Part shown: positions 15,016-40,575 of the stretch, one piece after another
Layout: the number at the start of each line of letters is the position of its first letter
Position numbering within the stretch: position 1 is the first letter of the stretch
NCBI GenBank assembly: GCA_001766655.1
Contig: MJCC01000011.1
Span: 540,167 to 604,166 of the forward strand
Source: Phytomonas francai
Lineage: Eukaryota; Euglenozoa; Kinetoplastea; Trypanosomatida; Trypanosomatidae
Reading direction: 5' to 3'
Length of the DNA stretch: 64,000 nucleotides
Notes under the pieces: generated by a model
Told to the model about the DNA's origin: nothing
The model's input: the letters and a program-made list of their open reading frames with translations, nothing else
Databases searched by the model: none
Program-made: the position numbers and the translations under genes

Positions 15016-16932
15016 CTAGAATGGACAGATAACAGAAGACAAACGCATCAAAAATGGGCGATTCTCCGCGGGCACGACGAGCGGCAATACGGCGTCTGGA
15101 TAGGCCCCGAACAGCTGCGAGGGCGCCGTTGCCCTCTTTTCCTGAGCCTCGGGCCGCCGGGGGGTTCTTTCCCCTGCATCATTCACGGCGGCGGCGCCCC
15201 CTCTTTCGCCTTCGCCCTCTCCTGGGGGCCATTCCCCCCCCCTCTCCCCGCTGAACGCCATAAAGGCGTGCTCGTAATCGCAGAGGAAGTCCGCGCAGCA
15301 GCTCCGCTGTGCCAAAATGCACTCGTCGAGGATCAAATCGACGTGCCGCGCCCCGGGGACGACGAGGAAGCGAAGCTCCACGGGAGGGGGNNNNNNNNNN
15401 NNNNNNNNNNNNNNNNNNNNNNNNNNNNNNNNNNNNNNNNNNNNNNNNNNNNNNNNNNNNNNNNNNNNNNNNNNNNNNNNNNNNNNNNNNNNNNNNNNNN
15501 NNNNNNNNNNNNNNNNNNNNNNNNNNNNNNNNNNNNNNNNNNNNNNNNNNNNNNNNNNNNNNNNNNNNNNNNNNNNNNNNNNNNNCGCCCGCCACCCCCG
15601 CCAGGCCGCGGCGAAGCGGCGCTGGGCCTCGCGCAGGACGGCGACGAGCGCCCCGCTCTCCCGCGGCGGCGCGCTCCGGTCGGCGTCGCCGTGCAGGAAA
15701 AAGAGCCTCGGCGGGAGGAAGCTGAAGAAGGCGCTCGGCAGGACCTCGCCGGTCTCGCCGGCGCGGCGGGGGTCGAAGTAGGCCGGGATCGAGTACCGCG
15801 CGAGGCCGTCGGCGCCGCCGACGATGCGCGCGAGGACGTGGCGGTTGAGCCCGTTTTCGCAGAGCCGCGGCCGCATCGCCTCGAGATTGTAGAGCCCGCT
15901 CAGCCCGACAAAACGGTGAATCGCGCGGCGCGGGTTGTACCGCGGGACGTTGTAGGCCACGTCCGACGGCGGCGGCAGCCCCTCCCGCTGCTCGCTCGCC
16001 GCGTACGCGCAGAGGTGGGCCTGCGAGAGCAGCGACATCATCGCGAGGTGCGCGCCCGCGGAGTGGCCGATGAGGGTGACGTTGTCGAGGTCCCCGTTGT
16101 AGCGCCCCGCGTTGTTCAGCACCCACGCGATCGCGTCCGAGACATCGAGCGTCATGCCGGCCACCGTCGTCTGCGGGAAGTTGCGGTAGTCGGGGCAGAA
16201 GACGACGTAGCCGCGCGCGGCGAGGACGCGCGCGAGCATGGCCCCCCACATCTGGCTCCCGATGATCCACGCCCCGCCGGTGAGCACGATCGCGACCGGG
16301 AACTTCCGCCGGCGAACCCCGCCCAGCTCCAGCGAGTGCATCAGCGCGTCAAGCGGGATCGGCAGGACGATGTCGAGGGTCGCGCGGTTGTGCAGGTTCC
16401 GCAGGTCCTCGGCGTCCGCCTCGGTCGCCGGGGGAAGGGCCTTGCCGAGGTCCAAGTGGGGCGCGTCGGCGGCCGCCTTTCGCGCGCGCTGGGGGCCGCG
16501 CCCGCAGGTCGGGAGAGGCAGGCTGCGCAGCGCGGAGCCGTCCGCCGGGTTCACGTTAAACCGCGAGCTGCGCAGCAGGCGCCGGAGGACGAGGCCGACG
16601 GCCCGGCGACTCCTCCGTTCGCCGTTCAGGGAGGACCGCCGGGGCTCCGTTCGCCGGAGGAGCTCCCCCAGGTTCACCCCCTCTGCCTCGAGGACGCGGC
16701 CGAGGTTGCGGTACTTCGTCGTCAGCGAGCTGCGGTAGGCCACGCGGCGGATGATGTTCGACGAGGAAAGGTACCACCAACAGTGGGGGAGGTAAAACCG
16801 AAGCATAAGGCCGCCGTAGACGAGGAGCCGAATCGCCTGCAGGACCCAGGTGACGCCGGTGCTCAGGGCTACCAGTAGCTGCACGACGCATTTCAGCATC
16901 CAGACAAACTGCTGGAAGGCATAGGCATACAT
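15016..16932 (-). CDS. Isoprenylcysteine methylesterase-like alpha/beta hydrolase, copy A (contains assembly gap)
   Basis: About 638 residues, including 65 unknown ones inside the gap at 15391-15585. The N-terminus (residues 1-65) has hydrophobic membrane segments (FVWMLKCVVQLLVALSTGVTW, LLVYGGLMLRFYL). The catalytic domain shows the oxyanion-loop region GGAWIIGSQMWG, the nucleophile elbow GHSAGAH with Ser291, HGDADRSAP with Asp418, and GARHVDLIL with the putative catalytic His. The closest family I recognise is isoprenylcysteine alpha-carbonyl methylesterase (ICME), which demethylates prenylated protein C-termini at ER/Golgi membranes; substrate is inferred. It is GC3-rich throughout. A second copy lies just upstream in transcription order at 17885-19837, and the two share a 361-bp near-identical block. 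Confidence 0.8.
   Translation of the reverse strand: MYAYAFQQFVWMLKCVVQLLVALSTGVTWVLQAIRLLVYGGLMLRFYLPHCWWYLSSSNIIRRVAYRSSLTTKYRNLGRVLEAEGVNLGELLRRTEPRRSSLNGERRSRRAVGLVLRRLLRSSRFNVNPADGSALRSLPLPTCGRGPQRARKAAADAPHLDLGKALPPATEADAEDLRNLHNRATLDIVLPIPLDALMHSLELGGVRRRKFPVAIVLTGGAWIIGSQMWGAMLARVLAARGYVVFCPDYRNFPQTTVAGMTLDVSDAIAWVLNNAGRYNGDLDNVTLIGHSAGAHLAMMSLLSQAHLCAYAASEQREGLPPPSDVAYNVPRYNPRRAIHRFVGLSGLYNLEAMRPRLCENGLNRHVLARIVGGADGLARYSIPAYFDPRRAGETGEVLPSAFFSFLPPRLFFLHGDADRSAPPRESGALVAVLREAQRRFAAAWRGWRAXXXXXXXXXXXXXXXXXXXXXXXXXXXXXXXXXXXXXXXXXXXXXXXXXXXXXXXXXXXXXXXXXPPPVELRFLVVPGARHVDLILDECILAQRSCCADFLCDYEHAFMAFSGERGGEWPPGEGEGERGGAAAVNDAGERTPRRPEAQEKRATAPSQLFGAYPDAVLPLVVPAENRPFLMRLSSVICPF
15391..15585. 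other. Assembly gap, 195 N
   Basis: Run of N inside methylesterase-like copy A, between the catalytic Asp and His regions. The frame is the same on both sides, so the gap length is compatible with the true length but not proven. Confidence 0.99.
15918..16278. repeat. Near-identical 361-bp block shared with 18592-18952 (copy A)
   Basis: Matches 18592-18952 at a constant offset of 2674 bases with one mismatch by eye (G at 16075 against A at 18749). It encodes the core from the oxyanion loop through the GHSAG elbow. Both flanks diverge abruptly. Confidence 0.95.
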
Positions 16933-17884
16933 CGCTCAATTTTTTTAATCTGAAAGGCAAGCCAATCGAACGTCATCAATAAAGCATATATATTTATATC
17001 TATATCAATATCTATCTATCTATCTATCTATATATATATATATTTATCTATATATATATATATATATAGGTAAGGGGGAAAAAGGTTCGACGACGTGAAG
17101 TCTCTTTCTTGCTACCTTGTGATGGGAATAAAGAGAAAAAGGATTGATTTGTTTTATTTCACAGAGGGTTGAAGCTGCATGCTGAAAATAGGGAGGGATG
17201 TGGGGGTACTAATCCATTCTGGGAATCTTTGGGTACAAGTCATGTACATTATAGCCTCCTGTATAGTCATTAAAAATAGACACCTATACGCTAACGGAGT
17301 GCGAAACGAAAATAATGCATACACAAAGGATTGACAAAACTTTATACAATGCAATGGGTTTAATGGCAAATTAACACCCATTCTTCCAGAAGGTTATCAT
17401 TTCTTGATAACCTACATCCATTTTCTATTTTAGTCAGAAAAGAGGAGGGGATCAGACTTTTATGCAATGCTGTGCTAGATATGCAATACCAAAGTATTAA
17501 AAAACAGAGGAAGCAAACAAACGAGATATCCGAAAACAAAAAAAATACTACAACATTCACATTTCACAGCATTCCAAACCCTCCAAGTCGGGTTAAAAAA
17601 AAAAAAGCAGAGCAAGTAAGATTTAATAAATATTTTATTTGCATTGACTTCCTATCAGACTAGAATTTACATATTTCCACATATTTTCTTTTGTTTCTGA
17701 ACACATTTCACGGCCAGAACGCCGGTACACAGTTAGGATGTACACAAAGCCTTAATAGTATGCATCTTCTCCTAACTCCTAGTGGCTGCTTTGAAGACGG
17801 AGTCTGAAAAAAGTCAATGCAAGGGTTGAAAATAGCGTATTTTTGAGGTGATTGCGTTCGTCCCATCCCGTACACAACTCTTGA
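16933..17884. other. Spacer between the two methylesterase-like genes, about 950 bases
   Basis: AT-rich, starting with a TATC/TA microsatellite. No similarity to the shared coding block was noticed and no coding signal is seen. In minus-strand sense it holds the 3' UTR of copy B and the leader of copy A. Confidence 0.6.
16984..17068. repeat. Compound (TATC)n/(TA)n microsatellite
   Basis: About 85 bases of TATA, TATC and TA units, 50-135 bases upstream of the copy A start in transcript sense. Confidence 0.9.
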
Positions 17885-19837
17885 TTAGAAGGGAGAAACA
17901 AAACTGGCAAGGCGCATTAATATAGGGCGTTTTTTCATAGGCAATGGGGGGATCAGGATGGTGTCTGGTTGACCTGCTGGCCGTATGTTAGATAAGCTTT
18001 CCTCTTCTGCGTTCAATGGGATGTCGGCGCGGTTTAAATTGGCCTGACCTACAGTCGGTGAGTAGGCTTTAGGCGACACCGGTATATAGGCACCGCTGGT
18101 TTGCTTATTGACAGCGCTCATGTCGTAGTTTACAAGCAACTCCACAACATGGCTATAATGAGCGCAGAGAGGCTCCTCGATAACAAAGTCGGTATGTGTG
18201 GCGCCAGACACAAGGACGTACTCTATTAAAACTGGCTTGGGCCCGTTCAGGGCGCGAACGGGGTTCGATTGATAAAGCGCCATCAACATCTTCCGCTGCG
18301 CGTTCCGCATCTTGTAGACTAGCCTAGAGCTCTCTTTCACTGGAGAGCTTTTGTCGGCATCGCCGTGTGCAAAGAGCATTTCCTCAGGTAAATAGTCAAA
18401 GAAAATGAGCGGGAGCGTTTCACCGGTGCGAGCCAATAGGTAGTCATCAAAGTAGGCACAGGGGGAATAGCGCCACAGCTGCGTCCGTGAACCGAAAATT
18501 TGGAAGAGCACTCTGCGGGTGAGACCACGGCTATCAAAGTGTTTGACTAGTTGATAAACGGCGTAAAGCCCGCTGAAGCCGATGAAGCGGCGAATCGCGC
18601 GGCGCGGGTTGTACCGCGGGACGTTGTAGGCCACGTCCGACGGCGGCGGCAGCCCCTCCCGCTGCTCGCTCGCCGCGTACGCGCAGAGGTGGGCCTGCGA
18701 GAGCAGCGACATCATCGCGAGGTGCGCGCCCGCGGAGTGGCCGATGAGAGTGACGTTGTCGAGGTCCCCGTTGTAGCGCCCCGCGTTGTTCAGCACCCAC
18801 GCGATCGCGTCCGAGACATCGAGCGTCATGCCGGCCACCGTCGTCTGCGGGAAGTTGCGGTAGTCGGGGCAGAAGACGACGTAGCCGCGCGCGGCGAGGA
18901 CGCGCGCGAGCATGGCCCCCCACATCTGGCTCCCGATGATCCACGCCCCGCCCGAAACTAAAATGACAATAGGAAACTTCTTGGGCCCGGGAAGGTTGAA
19001 CTGAGTGTTACCCTCGTCGTTGCTTTCATCATCACAAGTTGTTTTCTGCTCCCTACTGGTGTCCATCTTTTTTGCGTTAATAGAAAGTTGAAGAAAGACA
19101 TTCAGAGGCACCGGTAGGTAAATGTCGAGAGTCGCACGATTGTGCAAGTTTTTCAGGTCTTCTTCGTCACCGTCAGAATCATCAGAAGTGCATAGGTCAT
19201 CGTCCAAGTCTAATTCTGAGTTTTTCGCCTTCTCTTTAATGCCCAATTGGTTTTCCTCGGTCAGGGTAATTTTCTTTAGGATAGTCTTAACTTCATTGAT
19301 CGAGGTACTGGGAAGTAGTATTTTTTCATCCTTGCTGATAGCAGCATCATTCGGATTCACAGGAAGCCCAATAATATAGGATCCGTCTGCAGGGTTCAGC
19401 ATTGGCGCAAGCTCATCGATGGTGTGGAGTGGAAGGTTGTTTCGGTAGAGAAGACACCGTTCCTCACTCCCGAAGCTCTGGCACCTGCTGCAGGAATCCC
19501 TGTTGCAGTCGGCGCCTTTCATCAAGTCGGCATCCGACGGGTTTGCGTGTGTCAGAGTCGCACCCTGCTGTTGCAAGTGGTGCATGAGCTGCTCCCTGCA
19601 GTTTCGCCGTTTTGTCCTGCGCGAGCTGCGGTAGGTCACACGGCGTATGATTTGGGGCGAGGTCAGGTACCACACCAAAGTGGAGATGAAGTAGACGGAG
19701 TTTAACACACCGTAGAGCAGACAGCGGGTAGACATCAAAACCCATGTGAGCCCGATTCCAAAGGCAGCAAGAAGCTGTGTAACCGAAATAAAGATCCAGA
19801 GGACCTGATTGTAGACATGATTTAGCACACTCAACAT
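17885..19837 (-). CDS. Isoprenylcysteine methylesterase-like alpha/beta hydrolase, copy B
   Basis: A complete 650-residue paralogue of copy A. The N-terminal membrane region (LWIFISVTQLLAAFGIGLTWV and following hydrophobic segments to about residue 65) is followed by a Cys- and acid-rich linker that is longer than in copy A (about residues 85-290). The catalytic domain has GGAWIIGSQMWG, GHSAGAH with Ser368, HGDADKSSP with Asp495 and SGATHTDFVIEE with His548, so the triad looks complete. The assigned role is removal of methyl esters from prenylated C-terminal cysteines at internal membranes; the family is inferred from fold and motifs. Codon use is AT-richer than in copy A except in the 361-bp shared block, which stands out as a GC-rich patch. 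Confidence 0.82.
   Translation of the reverse strand: MLSVLNHVYNQVLWIFISVTQLLAAFGIGLTWVLMSTRCLLYGVLNSVYFISTLVWYLTSPQIIRRVTYRSSRRTKRRNCREQLMHHLQQQGATLTHANPSDADLMKGADCNRDSCSRCQSFGSEERCLLYRNNLPLHTIDELAPMLNPADGSYIIGLPVNPNDAAISKDEKILLPSTSINEVKTILKKITLTEENQLGIKEKAKNSELDLDDDLCTSDDSDGDEEDLKNLHNRATLDIYLPVPLNVFLQLSINAKKMDTSREQKTTCDDESNDEGNTQFNLPGPKKFPIVILVSGGAWIIGSQMWGAMLARVLAARGYVVFCPDYRNFPQTTVAGMTLDVSDAIAWVLNNAGRYNGDLDNVTLIGHSAGAHLAMMSLLSQAHLCAYAASEQREGLPPPSDVAYNVPRYNPRRAIRRFIGFSGLYAVYQLVKHFDSRGLTRRVLFQIFGSRTQLWRYSPCAYFDDYLLARTGETLPLIFFDYLPEEMLFAHGDADKSSPVKESSRLVYKMRNAQRKMLMALYQSNPVRALNGPKPVLIEYVLVSGATHTDFVIEEPLCAHYSHVVELLVNYDMSAVNKQTSGAYIPVSPKAYSPTVGQANLNRADIPLNAEEESLSNIRPAGQPDTILIPPLPMKKRPILMRLASFVSPF
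18592..18952. repeat. Near-identical 361-bp block shared with 15918-16278 (copy B)
   Basis: GC-rich, C/G-ending codons inside an otherwise moderate-GC gene. Sequence on both sides immediately changes to divergent, AT-richer codons, for example after GCCCCGCC at 18952. Confidence 0.95.
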
Positions 19838-20032: not shown

Positions 20033-20068
<36 letters not shown>

Positions 20069-20311
20069 ACTCACAGAAAAGTGAAGCCAAACAATAGCTA
20101 AAATGAAGCTAGTAAGATTTTGGCCATATGGTTCTCTCATACGCACGTGGGATTTAAACATCTTCCTCATCTCCCTTCTGTATTATTTCTCTCCTTGGCT
20201 TTGTTTGCTCTCTTAACTGTAATTTACAGGGGGGGGGGGGGGAATGAAACGTCATACGACAACGAAATCAGGAGAGAGAGATAGTGGCAACGCGATAGAG
20301 CGCCAAATTCT
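19838..20311. other. Spacer with TA microsatellite and G tract
   Basis: About 470 AT-rich bases. It holds a TA run (20035-20066) and a G tract (20230-20242). No coding signal. Confidence 0.6.
20035..20066. repeat. (TA)n microsatellite
   Basis: About 32 bases of alternating TA in the spacer upstream of copy B. Confidence 0.95.
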
Positions 20312-27707: not shown

Positions 27708-29110
27708 TCAGATCGCCGGACAGCGATAGAGGTAGGGCAGCCCCTGGACGCGGTCCTTGGCGTGCTGGAGCTCGCGCAGGATGCGGGGCGGCGGGGCGTC
27801 GTCCGGGCCGACGTCGCCGGGGCGGAGCTGGACGACGGTGGGCTCGTCGGCGAGGGCGGGGCCGATGGCGGTCGCGGCCGCGAGCGCGCCGGGCGCCATC
27901 CCCGCGAGTTCGTTCGCGCTGCCGCCGCCGGGCCGCGNGGCCGCGAGCGCGCCGGGCGCCATCCCCGCGAGTTCGTTCGCGCTGCCGCCGCCGGGCCGCG
28001 CGTCGGCGGCGGTGCGGCGGAAGAGCAGCTCTTCCGCGGGCGCGAGGTCGCCGAGGAGGGCGCAGCGCTGGAGGACGCCGGCGAGGCTGCGCTTCGTGTG
28101 CACGCGCTGCATCGACGGCGACGCCGCGAGCAGGCGCTCGGCCAGCCGCAGAGCGTCGCCGCGGATCGCCCGCGCGAGCGCGCGGCCCCGCCCGGTGCTG
28201 CNNNNNNNNNNNNNNNNNNNNNNNNNGGCGCCCCGCCCTCCGACGGCGCCACCGTCGACGCCCCGCCCTCCGATGGCGCCGCCGTCGACGCCCCGTCGTC
28301 GTCGGCGTCCGCGGCGCGCAGGAGGTCGTCCTCCGACCAGTCGTTCGCCCGCGCGATCGCGCGCACGCGGTCGCGCATCACGCTGAGGGCCTCCGCCACC
28401 TCAAAGTCGCCGATGAACCGGTCGTAGTCGAGATTCCGCGCGAACTCGAGGAGATCGCTGGTTTCGTTGAGCTCGGCCTCAAACGCCTCGTCCTCGGTCA
28501 TGGCCCACTTCGGCTTCGCCTTCCCGGGCTTCGCCTTCGCGGTCGAGATAGGCTGCGAGGCACGCGGGAACGGCTCGAGCGCCTTGGCAGGGTTGTACGG
28601 CGCCGGCTGGGGCGGCTGACCGGCGCTTTCGCCGTCGGCATCCTCGGCGGGCGAGGCCTCCATTCTCTGGATCACCGCCCCTCGAAGATGAGCCGCTCGC
28701 CGCGCGGCTTCGACCTCACGATCGAGGTCCGCTTGCTTCATGTTCTTTAGCTGTTTCGCAAAGCTACGCAGCCAGCGACGGTGCCGAGAGAGCACCTGCT
28801 GCGATTTCGTCCGGTTCTTGCCCTGGTTCTGTGCGCGCATCGCCTGATTGCGCTCTCGCAAGGCGCGACACTCCGCAGATGGACCCAGGCCAAGTGGATT
28901 GCCAGTCTTATTTGCAGGGGAAAAGTCCCTGTCGTGACTGACTCCACCGGCGTCATTGCTCAGTCCAAAATCATTTCCGCCGCCTAGCGGCAGCGTTGGT
29001 CGGTCGCAAAGGAGGATGCCTTTGTAATTTTCTAAGTAGATATTTGCGTTGGCGGGCTTCGAATACATCGCCGGATGCTGGCTAAGCAATACATCTTTGA
29101 AGTTTTCCAT
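27708..29110 (-). CDS. Unknown helical protein; gene interrupted by an assembly gap
   Basis: The start at 29110 (MENFKDVLLSQHPAMYSK) reads cleanly to the gap at 28202-28226. After the gap the sensible frame is shifted by one and ends at the stop at 27708 with LQHAKDRVQGLPYLYRCPAI, so the 25 N do not represent the true length. The N-terminal part has ENYKGILLCDRPTL and a basic helix RSFAKQLKNMKQADLDREVEAARR. The middle has an acidic WAMTEDEAFEAELNETSDLL and LEFARNLDYDRFIGDFEVAEA, followed by MRDRVRAIARANDWSEDDLL. The part after the gap is helical. The composition recalls conserved cilium/flagellum-associated proteins, but no family is firmly recognised. Apparent doubling of 21 codons at 27876-28000 is an assembly artefact. 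Confidence 0.65.
27876..28000. repeat. Perfect 62-bp direct duplication separated by one N
   Basis: Bases 27876-27937 and 27939-28000 are identical and separated by a single N. This is the signature of two contig ends overlapping and joined without merging, rather than biology. True sequence probably has one copy. Confidence 0.85.
28202..28226. other. Assembly gap, 25 N
   Basis: Gap inside a repetitive GC-rich coding stretch: the sequence right of it encodes repeated DDGAST-AAPSEGG units. Frame changes across it. Confidence 0.99.
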
Positions 29111-40565: not shown

Positions 40566-40575
40566 NNNNNNNNNN
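40566..40575. other. Assembly gap, 10 N
   Basis: Gap within the switch region between a GT-rich stretch and a G run, so the tract length here is unknown. Confidence 0.99.

What the first reader, a model, noticed from the sequence alone, without database searches (positions are those of the whole stretch)
15918..18952. 361-bp gene-conversion tract covering the catalytic core of two methylesterase-like paralogues
Bases 15918-16278 and 18592-18952 match with one mismatch at a constant offset of 2674. Outside the block the two genes differ in sequence, linker length and codon composition: copy B is AT-richer except for exactly this block. The shared segment spans the oxyanion loop and the GHSAG nucleophile elbow. 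The simplest reading is a recent, sharply bounded conversion from the GC-rich copy A into copy B. Mis-assembly joining the two copies is the alternative.
Basis: seen in the sequence. Interest (0 to 1): 0.75.

Follow-up and report, generated by a model that had tools for sequence, protein, structure and literature searches.

The report
Repeatedly copied core between hydrolase genes
Two neighbouring, otherwise very different enzyme genes in a Phytomonas-like plant parasite share a nearly identical stretch around their active site because one gene was recently copied over the other there, and related parasites show that this copying has happened more than once at the same place.

Summary
Bases 15918-16278 and 18592-18952 match at 360 of 361 positions in register inside two tandem alpha/beta-hydrolase genes, A (15016-16932, -) and B (17885-19837, -), that are about 49% identical elsewhere. 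dS is 0.011 inside and 1.7 or not computable outside. B's third-position GC is 0.98 in the block and 0.58 on both sides; A is GC-rich throughout. So A was recently converted into B.

The event is not a one-off. In Phytomonas EM1 the same two paralogues share 117 consecutive identical residues, with different residues and edges. In flank trees A pairs with A and B with B between the species; in core trees A pairs with B within each species, and AU tests reject the alternatives both ways. Six Leishmaniinae pairs show overlapping homogenisation, more weakly and reaching further downstream.

Best reading: a conversion island over the nucleophile elbow, rewritten repeatedly while anchors, linkers and the C-terminal part diverged. 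Mis-assembly is unlikely. The process is known (partial gene conversion, domain-limited concerted evolution); two literature searches listed no report for this pair. No DNA from other species could be read.

The parts
15016..16932 (-). gene A, 638-aa alpha/beta hydrolase (donor), GC3 0.89
   Evidence: ORF; Pfam BD-FAE 1.3e-22; GC3; ortholog Phytomonas EM1 P0020
17885..19837 (-). gene B, 650-aa alpha/beta hydrolase (recipient), GC3 0.65
   Evidence: ORF; Pfam BD-FAE 1.8e-23; GC3; ortholog Phytomonas EM1 P0001
15918..16278 (-). shared block in gene A (donor tract)
   Evidence: 360/361 identical to 18592-18952; dS 0.011
18592..18952 (-). shared block in gene B (converted tract)
   Evidence: GC3 0.975 against 0.58 in both flanks; no other 120-codon stretch of B clear of the block exceeds 0.74
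16075..16075 (-). only mismatch, copy A: third base of Thr286 codon (ACC; ACT in B at 18749), synonymous
18749..18749 (-). only mismatch, copy B: third base of Thr363 codon (ACT)
16267..16278 (-). oxyanion-loop motif GGAW of A (residues 219-222), at the edge of the block
16054..16068 (-). nucleophile elbow GHSAG of A (residues 289-293), inside the block
   Evidence: the matching Ser of B (S368) is invariant in the 46-sequence alignment A2
18728..18742 (-). nucleophile elbow GHSAG of B (residues 366-370), inside the block
15679..15693 (-). HGDAD motif of A (residues 414-418) with the presumed triad Asp, outside the block
18353..18367 (-). HGDAD motif of B (residues 491-495) with the presumed triad Asp, outside the block
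   Evidence: D495 invariant in A2
18194..18196 (-). presumed triad His548 of B, outside the block
   Evidence: H548 invariant in A2
15391..15585 (.). 195-N assembly gap inside gene A, downstream of the block
16933..17884 (.). 952-bp spacer between the tandem genes; only chance-level short matches to the spacers on either side

Best explanation
A and B are old tandem paralogues of a kinetoplastid alpha/beta hydrolase with a hydrophobic N-terminal stretch. In the lineage of this window a short stretch of A, 361 bp or a little less, was recently copied into B by interlocus gene conversion (shown by silent-site identity, composition step and trees). The same region has been rewritten more than once: separately in the Phytomonas EM1 lineage and again in at least part of the Leishmaniinae (shown on protein sequence only). 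Likely mechanism (inferred): a break in or near one copy is repaired from the other 2.67 kb away. Recombination can use only the core, where protein constraint plus earlier conversions keep DNA similarity high, and it stops where flank similarity falls to about 50%. Each round restores the identity that allows the next, so the core is a self-maintaining conversion island. Linkers, the N-terminal stretch and the C-terminal part with the presumed Asp and His of the triad diverge more freely.
For: Window DNA: 360/361 identity; dN 0, dS 0.011 in the block, against dN 0.63 / dS 1.74 upstream and dN 0.75 / dS not computable downstream; 111 of 112 same-residue codons identical in the block against 33/85 and 29/80 outside. 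GC3 steps up in B at the block only. Trees of 37 proteins: in flanks A pairs with A (100/99) and B with B (100/100) between window and EM1, and window A+B is rejected (p 9e-86), EM1 A+B rejected (p 2e-10); in the core window A+B (100/94) and EM1 A+B (98/91) pair, and A+A (p 7e-7) and B+B (p 7e-6) are rejected. Runs of A-B identity: window 120 residues (B 296-415), EM1 117 residues (B 309-425), so the edges differ. Eight A-B pairs: core identity 0.81-0.99, flank identity 0.43-0.58. Leishmaniinae: 0 columns without a shared A/B state against 26 variable columns in core 310-416, 74 against 85 in flanks, Fisher p 5e-7; A monophyly rejected in core 317-423 (p 0.0023) and Porcisia A+B grouped 97/94. 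A/B-diagnostic columns: 3 of 107 in 310-416, against 28 of 76 at the N-terminus and 31 of 60 in 501-560.
Against: No DNA of EM1 or of any Leishmaniinae could be read, so recurrence rests on protein sequence. The core is the most constrained part of the protein, which lowers the number of informative sites. In Leishmaniinae the low-difference region is not the same as the window block: residues 284-309, which overlap the start of the block, keep A/B differences (11 of 26 diagnostic columns), while 417-500, beyond the block, has few (3 of 24 and 6 of 60) and none without a shared state (0 against 40 variable, Fisher p 6e-10). Yet a tree of 441-500 does not reject separate A and B. For L. mexicana and L. 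pyrrhocoris the core does not group A+B in the best tree, nor reject it (p 0.82 and 0.18). The trees used the simpler model without mixture. The within-species pairing signal also appears in flanks (4 of 720 permutations reach it, against 1 of 720 for the core, the observed pairing counted). The donor of the older Phytomonas event is not settled: a B donor is not rejected (p 0.097). The repair mechanism itself is inferred.
Confidence: 0.84

Rival explanations
1. Assembly artefact: the assembler or gap filler put A's core into B, and real B has its own core.
For: The assembly has gaps, one of 195 N inside gene A. Reads could not be examined.
Against: EM1, a separate isolate assembled from 454, Illumina and some Sanger reads (PMC3916237, passages), shows the same phenomenon with other residues and other edges. 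Leishmaniinae cores are homogenised too. The two copies differ at one silent base, so they were not simply collapsed.
Confidence: 0.04
2. One conversion in an ancestor of Phytomonas, then strong purifying selection, with no later event in either species.
For: The four window and EM1 cores group together and with the A-type P0033 core (98/97), so an ancestral event is likely as well.
Against: Each species' A and B share residues that the other species lacks; A+A and B+B core pairings are rejected. Silent identity in the window (dS 0.011) needs a recent event.
Confidence: 0.06
3. The recent transfer ran from B to A.
For: Direction cannot be read from the single mismatch alone.
Against: The block fits the composition of A around it (GC3 0.90 and 0.84) and stands out in B (0.58 and 0.58).
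Confidence: 0.04
4. No conversion: constraint or parallel adaptation keeps the two active-site regions alike.
For: The core is more conserved than the flanks in every one of the 27 comparisons between species printed.
Against: 111 of 112 same-residue codons are identical, silent positions included; in Leishmaniinae the core varies between species yet has no column without a shared A/B state.
Confidence: 0.02

Closest known systems
mtrA-1/mtrA-2 of methanogens (PMC4632066; outline with abstract and section 19 read)
   Same: Old paralogues whose shared domain is homogenised again and again by conversion while the attached domain differs.
   Different: Archaeal operon genes; a whole domain rather than part of a catalytic domain; dated by its authors at over 2,000 million years.
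TbrPDEB1 to TbrPDEB2 GAF-A domain conversion in Trypanosoma brucei Lister427 (PMC2689650; outline with abstract and section 13 read)
   Same: Trypanosomatid genes separated by 2379 bp; one domain copied from one gene into the other.
   Different: The two PDE genes are described as very similar; one event, one allele, found only in Lister427-derived strains; a GAF domain, not the nucleophile region.
Partial gene conversion in T. brucei tandem arrays (PMC1855330; section 12 and passages read): 21 of 47 arrays with chimaeric copies
   Same: Same process in a related organism.
   Different: Arrays of T. brucei; here flanks are 43-58% identical at protein level and the tract recurs at one place across genera.
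Plant isoprenylcysteine alpha-carbonyl methylesterase (ICME) type proteins
   Same: Nearest named relatives outside kinetoplastids; same hydrolase domain families.
   Different: 31-40% identity over 33-45% of the query only; substrate of the kinetoplastid proteins untested.

Membership tests
Interlocus gene conversion tract | In-register block of near identity between paralogues, with silent sites identical, flanked by divergent sequence | tested here: met
Interlocus gene conversion tract | Non-reciprocal transfer | tested here: met
   Both genes now hold the same sequence, which an exchange would not leave; composition fits A on both sides and steps in B. No unconverted close relative was available to confirm.
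Interlocus gene conversion tract | Block present in reads, not created by assembly | not testable with these tools
   No reads; recurrence in other assemblies is indirect support
Concerted evolution | Paralogues closer within species than orthologues between species, in the affected segment only | tested here: met
   Window and EM1: core against flank trees and AU tests
Concerted evolution | Same pattern in further species (Leishmaniinae) | tested here: inconclusive
   A monophyly rejected in core (p 0.0023) and Porcisia pair 97/94; L. mexicana and L. pyrrhocoris pairs unresolved
Alpha/beta hydrolase, BD-FAE / Abhydrolase_3 (PF20434, PF07859) | Score above Pfam gathering cut-off | tested here: met
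   BD-FAE: A 80.8 and B 83.6 bits against 26.8; Abhydrolase_3: 47.6 and 47.8 against 25
Alpha/beta hydrolase, BD-FAE / Abhydrolase_3 (PF20434, PF07859) | Fold, and conserved Ser, Asp and His fit for a triad | tested here: met
   S368, D495, H548 invariant in 46 aligned sequences; model of B, pLDDT 81.8, matches esterases, best E 1.1e-11. Activity not tested.
Isoprenylcysteine methylesterase (ICME) | Cleaves isoprenylcysteine methyl esters | not testable with these tools
   Only sequence resemblance
Ecotin / ISP3 (label on several homologues) | Ecotin domain PF03974 | tested here: not met
   Not among the Pfam matches of A or B nor of seven homologues so labelled; no match in the genome

The most novel reading that the evidence does not exclude
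The two hydrolases share one evolving active-site cassette: since before Phytomonas and Leishmaniinae split, conversion has kept rewriting the part of the catalytic domain around the nucleophile in both genes, and selection favours this because both enzymes must keep the same active-site chemistry while their anchors, linkers and the rest of the domain specialise.
Probability: 0.3. Interest if true: 0.62.

Novelty: new member of a known kind. Interest (0 to 1): 0.47.

Why it matters
It is a clean natural test of how small a homology island can sustain recurrent conversion between genes that are otherwise too different to recombine readily, and of whether constraint and conversion reinforce each other. 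It also warns that trees from the catalytic core of this family can group genes by species instead of by orthology, so orthology should be called from the flanks.

Tried and rejected
Constraint without conversion, reverse direction, one ancestral event only, and mis-assembly were weighed and set aside (see rivals). A reading in which the block edges follow structural modules was considered: in the model the window tract runs from the end of strand 288-295 to the start of strand 417-421, but EM1's tract edges at B 309 and 425 fall elsewhere, so it is not general. The donor of the older Phytomonas event could not be fixed (p 0.097). The 417-500 stretch in Leishmaniinae gives mixed results: few A/B-diagnostic columns (3 of 24 in 417-440, 6 of 60 in 441-500) and none without a shared state, but in a tree of 441-500 the A rows stay together (support 46/75), and holding the L. 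mexicana or the L. pyrrhocoris pair together is rejected. Spacers next to the genes show only chance-level short matches. NCBIfam gave only matches far below its cut-offs for A and B. A wider genome control was cut short: 190.7 kb of contig C2 including the window was scanned, giving six repeat pairs of 80 bp or more at E 1e-10; the coding context of the five other pairs was not examined.

Rows left out: the quick trees used the two window proteins and 40 of the 130 proteins found by then (P0035 and the more distant hits left out); the careful trees used 37 of these 42 rows (P0036, P0037, P0040 left out for long branches, P0007 and P0008 as near copies). Flank columns were chosen a little differently (278; 242). 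The Leishmaniinae set has 11 A and 9 B rows. Proteins are representatives of 90% clusters; the species of the 'L. infantum-type' A row (P0023) was cut off in the listing, so that pair may not come from one genome.

Full report
Observation. They lie inside two ORFs on the - strand, A (15016-16932, 638 aa) and B (17885-19837, 650 aa), 952 bp apart. A search of the 17.4-Mb genome with the block found two places, these. The block is in frame and in the homologous position: A residues 219-338 and B residues 296-415 plus one base. Outside it the aligned codons are 48.5% identical with a longest identical run of 15 nt; the longest run overall is 203 nt, in the block, and 5,000 shuffles of codon columns reached at most 40.

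What the genes are. Both proteins score above the Pfam cut-off for BD-FAE and Abhydrolase_3. An AlphaFold2 model of B (mean pLDDT 81.8, pTM 0.84) matches bacterial esterases best among solved structures. Ser368, Asp495 and His548 of B are invariant in 46 aligned sequences; that they form the triad follows from general knowledge of the fold and is not tested. Each protein has one hydrophobic N-terminal stretch by a hydropathy scan (A 9-38, B 11-35), so membrane anchoring is likely. The substrate is unknown; the nearest named relatives outside kinetoplastids are plant isoprenylcysteine methylesterase-like proteins, 31-40% identical over 33-45% of the query. The block holds the oxyanion GGAW and the nucleophile elbow GHSAG but not the presumed triad Asp or His. 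Several homologues carry the label 'ecotin', but A and B and seven homologues so labelled match no ecotin domain, and the genome has no match to it.

The organism. The closest relatives of both genes are the two paralogues of Phytomonas sp. EM1 (P0020 for A, P0001 for B), both listed with a longest contig of 100,444 bp. Genome size, 17.4 Mb, is like that of EM1 and HART1 (17.8 and 18.1 Mb; PMC3916237, passages read) and P. francai (17.7 Mb; PMC5256229, whole text read). The species was not identified; 'Phytomonas-like' is an inference.

Recent conversion in this window. In the block dN is 0 and dS 0.011; upstream dN is 0.63 and dS 1.74; downstream dN is 0.75 and dS cannot be computed (NG86; the YN00 method failed on all stretches). 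Of codons for the same residue (Met and Trp set aside) 111 of 112 are identical in the block, 33 of 85 upstream and 29 of 80 downstream. GC3 in B is 0.58 before, 0.975 in and 0.58 after the block; in A it is 0.90, 0.98 and 0.84. No 120-codon stretch of B clear of the block exceeds 0.74. This points to A as donor. GC3 varies widely among the 21 ORFs compared in the window (0.36-0.89), so the argument rests on the step at the block edges, not on the level.

A separate event in Phytomonas EM1. EM1's A and B share 117 consecutive identical residues (B coordinates 309-425), while window A and B share 120 (296-415); edges and residues differ. Trees were built from 37 kinetoplastid proteins on 124 core and 278 flank columns. 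In flanks window A groups with EM1 A (bootstrap/aLRT 100/99), window B with EM1 B (100/100), and all 13 A-type proteins of the set form a clade (100/100). Holding window A+B or EM1 A+B together in the flanks is rejected (AU p 9e-86 and 2e-10). In the core window A+B (100/94) and EM1 A+B (98/91) group; holding A+A or B+B together is rejected (p 7e-7 and 7e-6). The four window and EM1 cores group with P0033, A-type by its flanks, at 98/97; a B donor for that older event is not rejected (p 0.097).

Leishmaniinae. Both genes exist there, with neighbouring locus numbers in Porcisia hertigi (06075, 06076) and Leptomonas seymouri (6083, 6084). A-B identity in core and flank is: window 0.992 and 0.428, EM1 0.983 and 0.426, Porcisia 0.919 and 0.523, L. 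pyrrhocoris 0.839 and 0.564, L. seymouri 0.806 and 0.577, L. mexicana 0.879 and 0.544, L. braziliensis 0.871 and 0.548, L. infantum-type 0.911 and 0.564. Among 11 A and 9 B proteins, core columns 310-416 include 26 variable columns and none without a state shared by A and B; flanks have 85 and 74 (Fisher p 5e-7). Columns diagnostic for A against B number 3 of 107 in 310-416; elsewhere 28 of 76 (1-76), 7 of 31 (220-250), 11 of 26 (284-309), 3 of 24 (417-440), 6 of 60 (441-500), 31 of 60 (501-560) and 13 of 51 (600-650). So the low-difference region in Leishmaniinae starts later than the window block and runs on beyond it: 417-500 also has no column without a shared state, against 40 variable (Fisher p 6e-10). 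In a tree of core 317-423 monophyly of A is rejected (p 0.0023) and Porcisia A and B group (97/94); the L. mexicana and L. pyrrhocoris pairs are unresolved (p 0.82 and 0.18), and the Leptomonas and Lotmaria B cores still group together (94/89). In a tree of 441-500 the A rows stay together, though weakly supported (46/75) (simpler model without mixture). Pairing A with B of the same species gives the highest core identity of all 720 permutations of six species; the same test on flanks is reached by 4 of 720, so part of the signal is not confined to the core. Single mosaic patches were seen in L. infantum-type A, L. tarentolae B and L. seymouri A. These results support homogenisation in the Leishmaniinae after the duplication, in part after speciation, but only on protein sequence.

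Control. In 190.7 kb of contig C2 including the window, six repeat pairs of 80 bp or more were found; the longest is a 5.2-kb tandem duplication at C2:474161-484535 (98.4%), and the block comes next. The coding context of the other pairs was not examined, so how often such tracts occur in this genome remains open.

Mechanism. Inference: conversion between neighbouring copies is used in repair, and its rate falls with lower identity and with shorter identical stretches; a review gives about 80% identity and about 200 bp as rough working limits in yeast and rodents (PMC3924818, section 5 read). The flanks (48.5% identical) lie far below this. The core, kept alike by protein constraint and by earlier conversions, would lie above it. 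This makes a self-maintaining island with abrupt edges. Whether selection also favours shared active sites is open.

Known background. Partial conversion is common in trypanosome tandem arrays (21 of 47 in T. brucei; PMC1855330, section 12). A single-domain conversion is described for TbrPDEB1/2 (PMC2689650, outline with abstract and section 13). Long-lasting domain-limited conversion is described for mtrA of methanogens (PMC4632066, outline with abstract and section 19), and long-lasting recurrent concerted evolution for 26 prokaryotic genes (PMC6053082, outline with abstract). No paper held both 'isoprenylcysteine alpha-carbonyl methylesterase' and 'gene conversion'; a search with Phytomonas, gene conversion and paralog found 11 papers and listed 10, none with these genes in its title. 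The Phytomonas genome paper mentions gene conversion once, in a reference title. These searches cover an open-licence library only.

Verdict. The added finding is recurrence at the same place across genera. It is a good new example of a known process.

Noticed in passing
G000 contig C2:474161-484535 (loci L011-L012), outside the window: A 5.2-kb direct tandem duplication, 98.4% identical, followed by a further 265-bp partial copy ending at C2:484801.
   Followed up: no
15391-15585: A 195-base run of N inside gene A; the frame is open on both sides of it. Other N runs at 27938, 28202-28226 and 40566-40575.
   Followed up: no
proteins P0005, P0009, P0010, P0013, P0015, P0016, P0031: Hydrolases named 'ecotin' (one also 'ISP3') by sources, in which Pfam finds no ecotin domain at E up to 1; this genome has no PF03974 match. 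L. major ISP3 (LmjF15.0520) is described as a 41.8-kDa protein with an N-terminal ecotin-like domain (PMC2659362, section 5 and passages read), so the label looks like an annotation error.
   Followed up: partly
GHSAG at 16054-16068 and 18728-18742: The residue before the nucleophile serine is His in both copies of the window and of EM1 and Gln in nearly all other rows aligned; L. braziliensis A also has His.
   Followed up: partly
L. infantum-type A (P0023), L. tarentolae B (P0003), L. seymouri A (P0131), at B positions of about 451-510: Short runs of residues typical of the other paralogue, which look like further small conversions in both directions outside the core.
   Followed up: partly
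16980-17076 and 20035-20073: AT-rich simple repeats just upstream of each gene.
   Followed up: no
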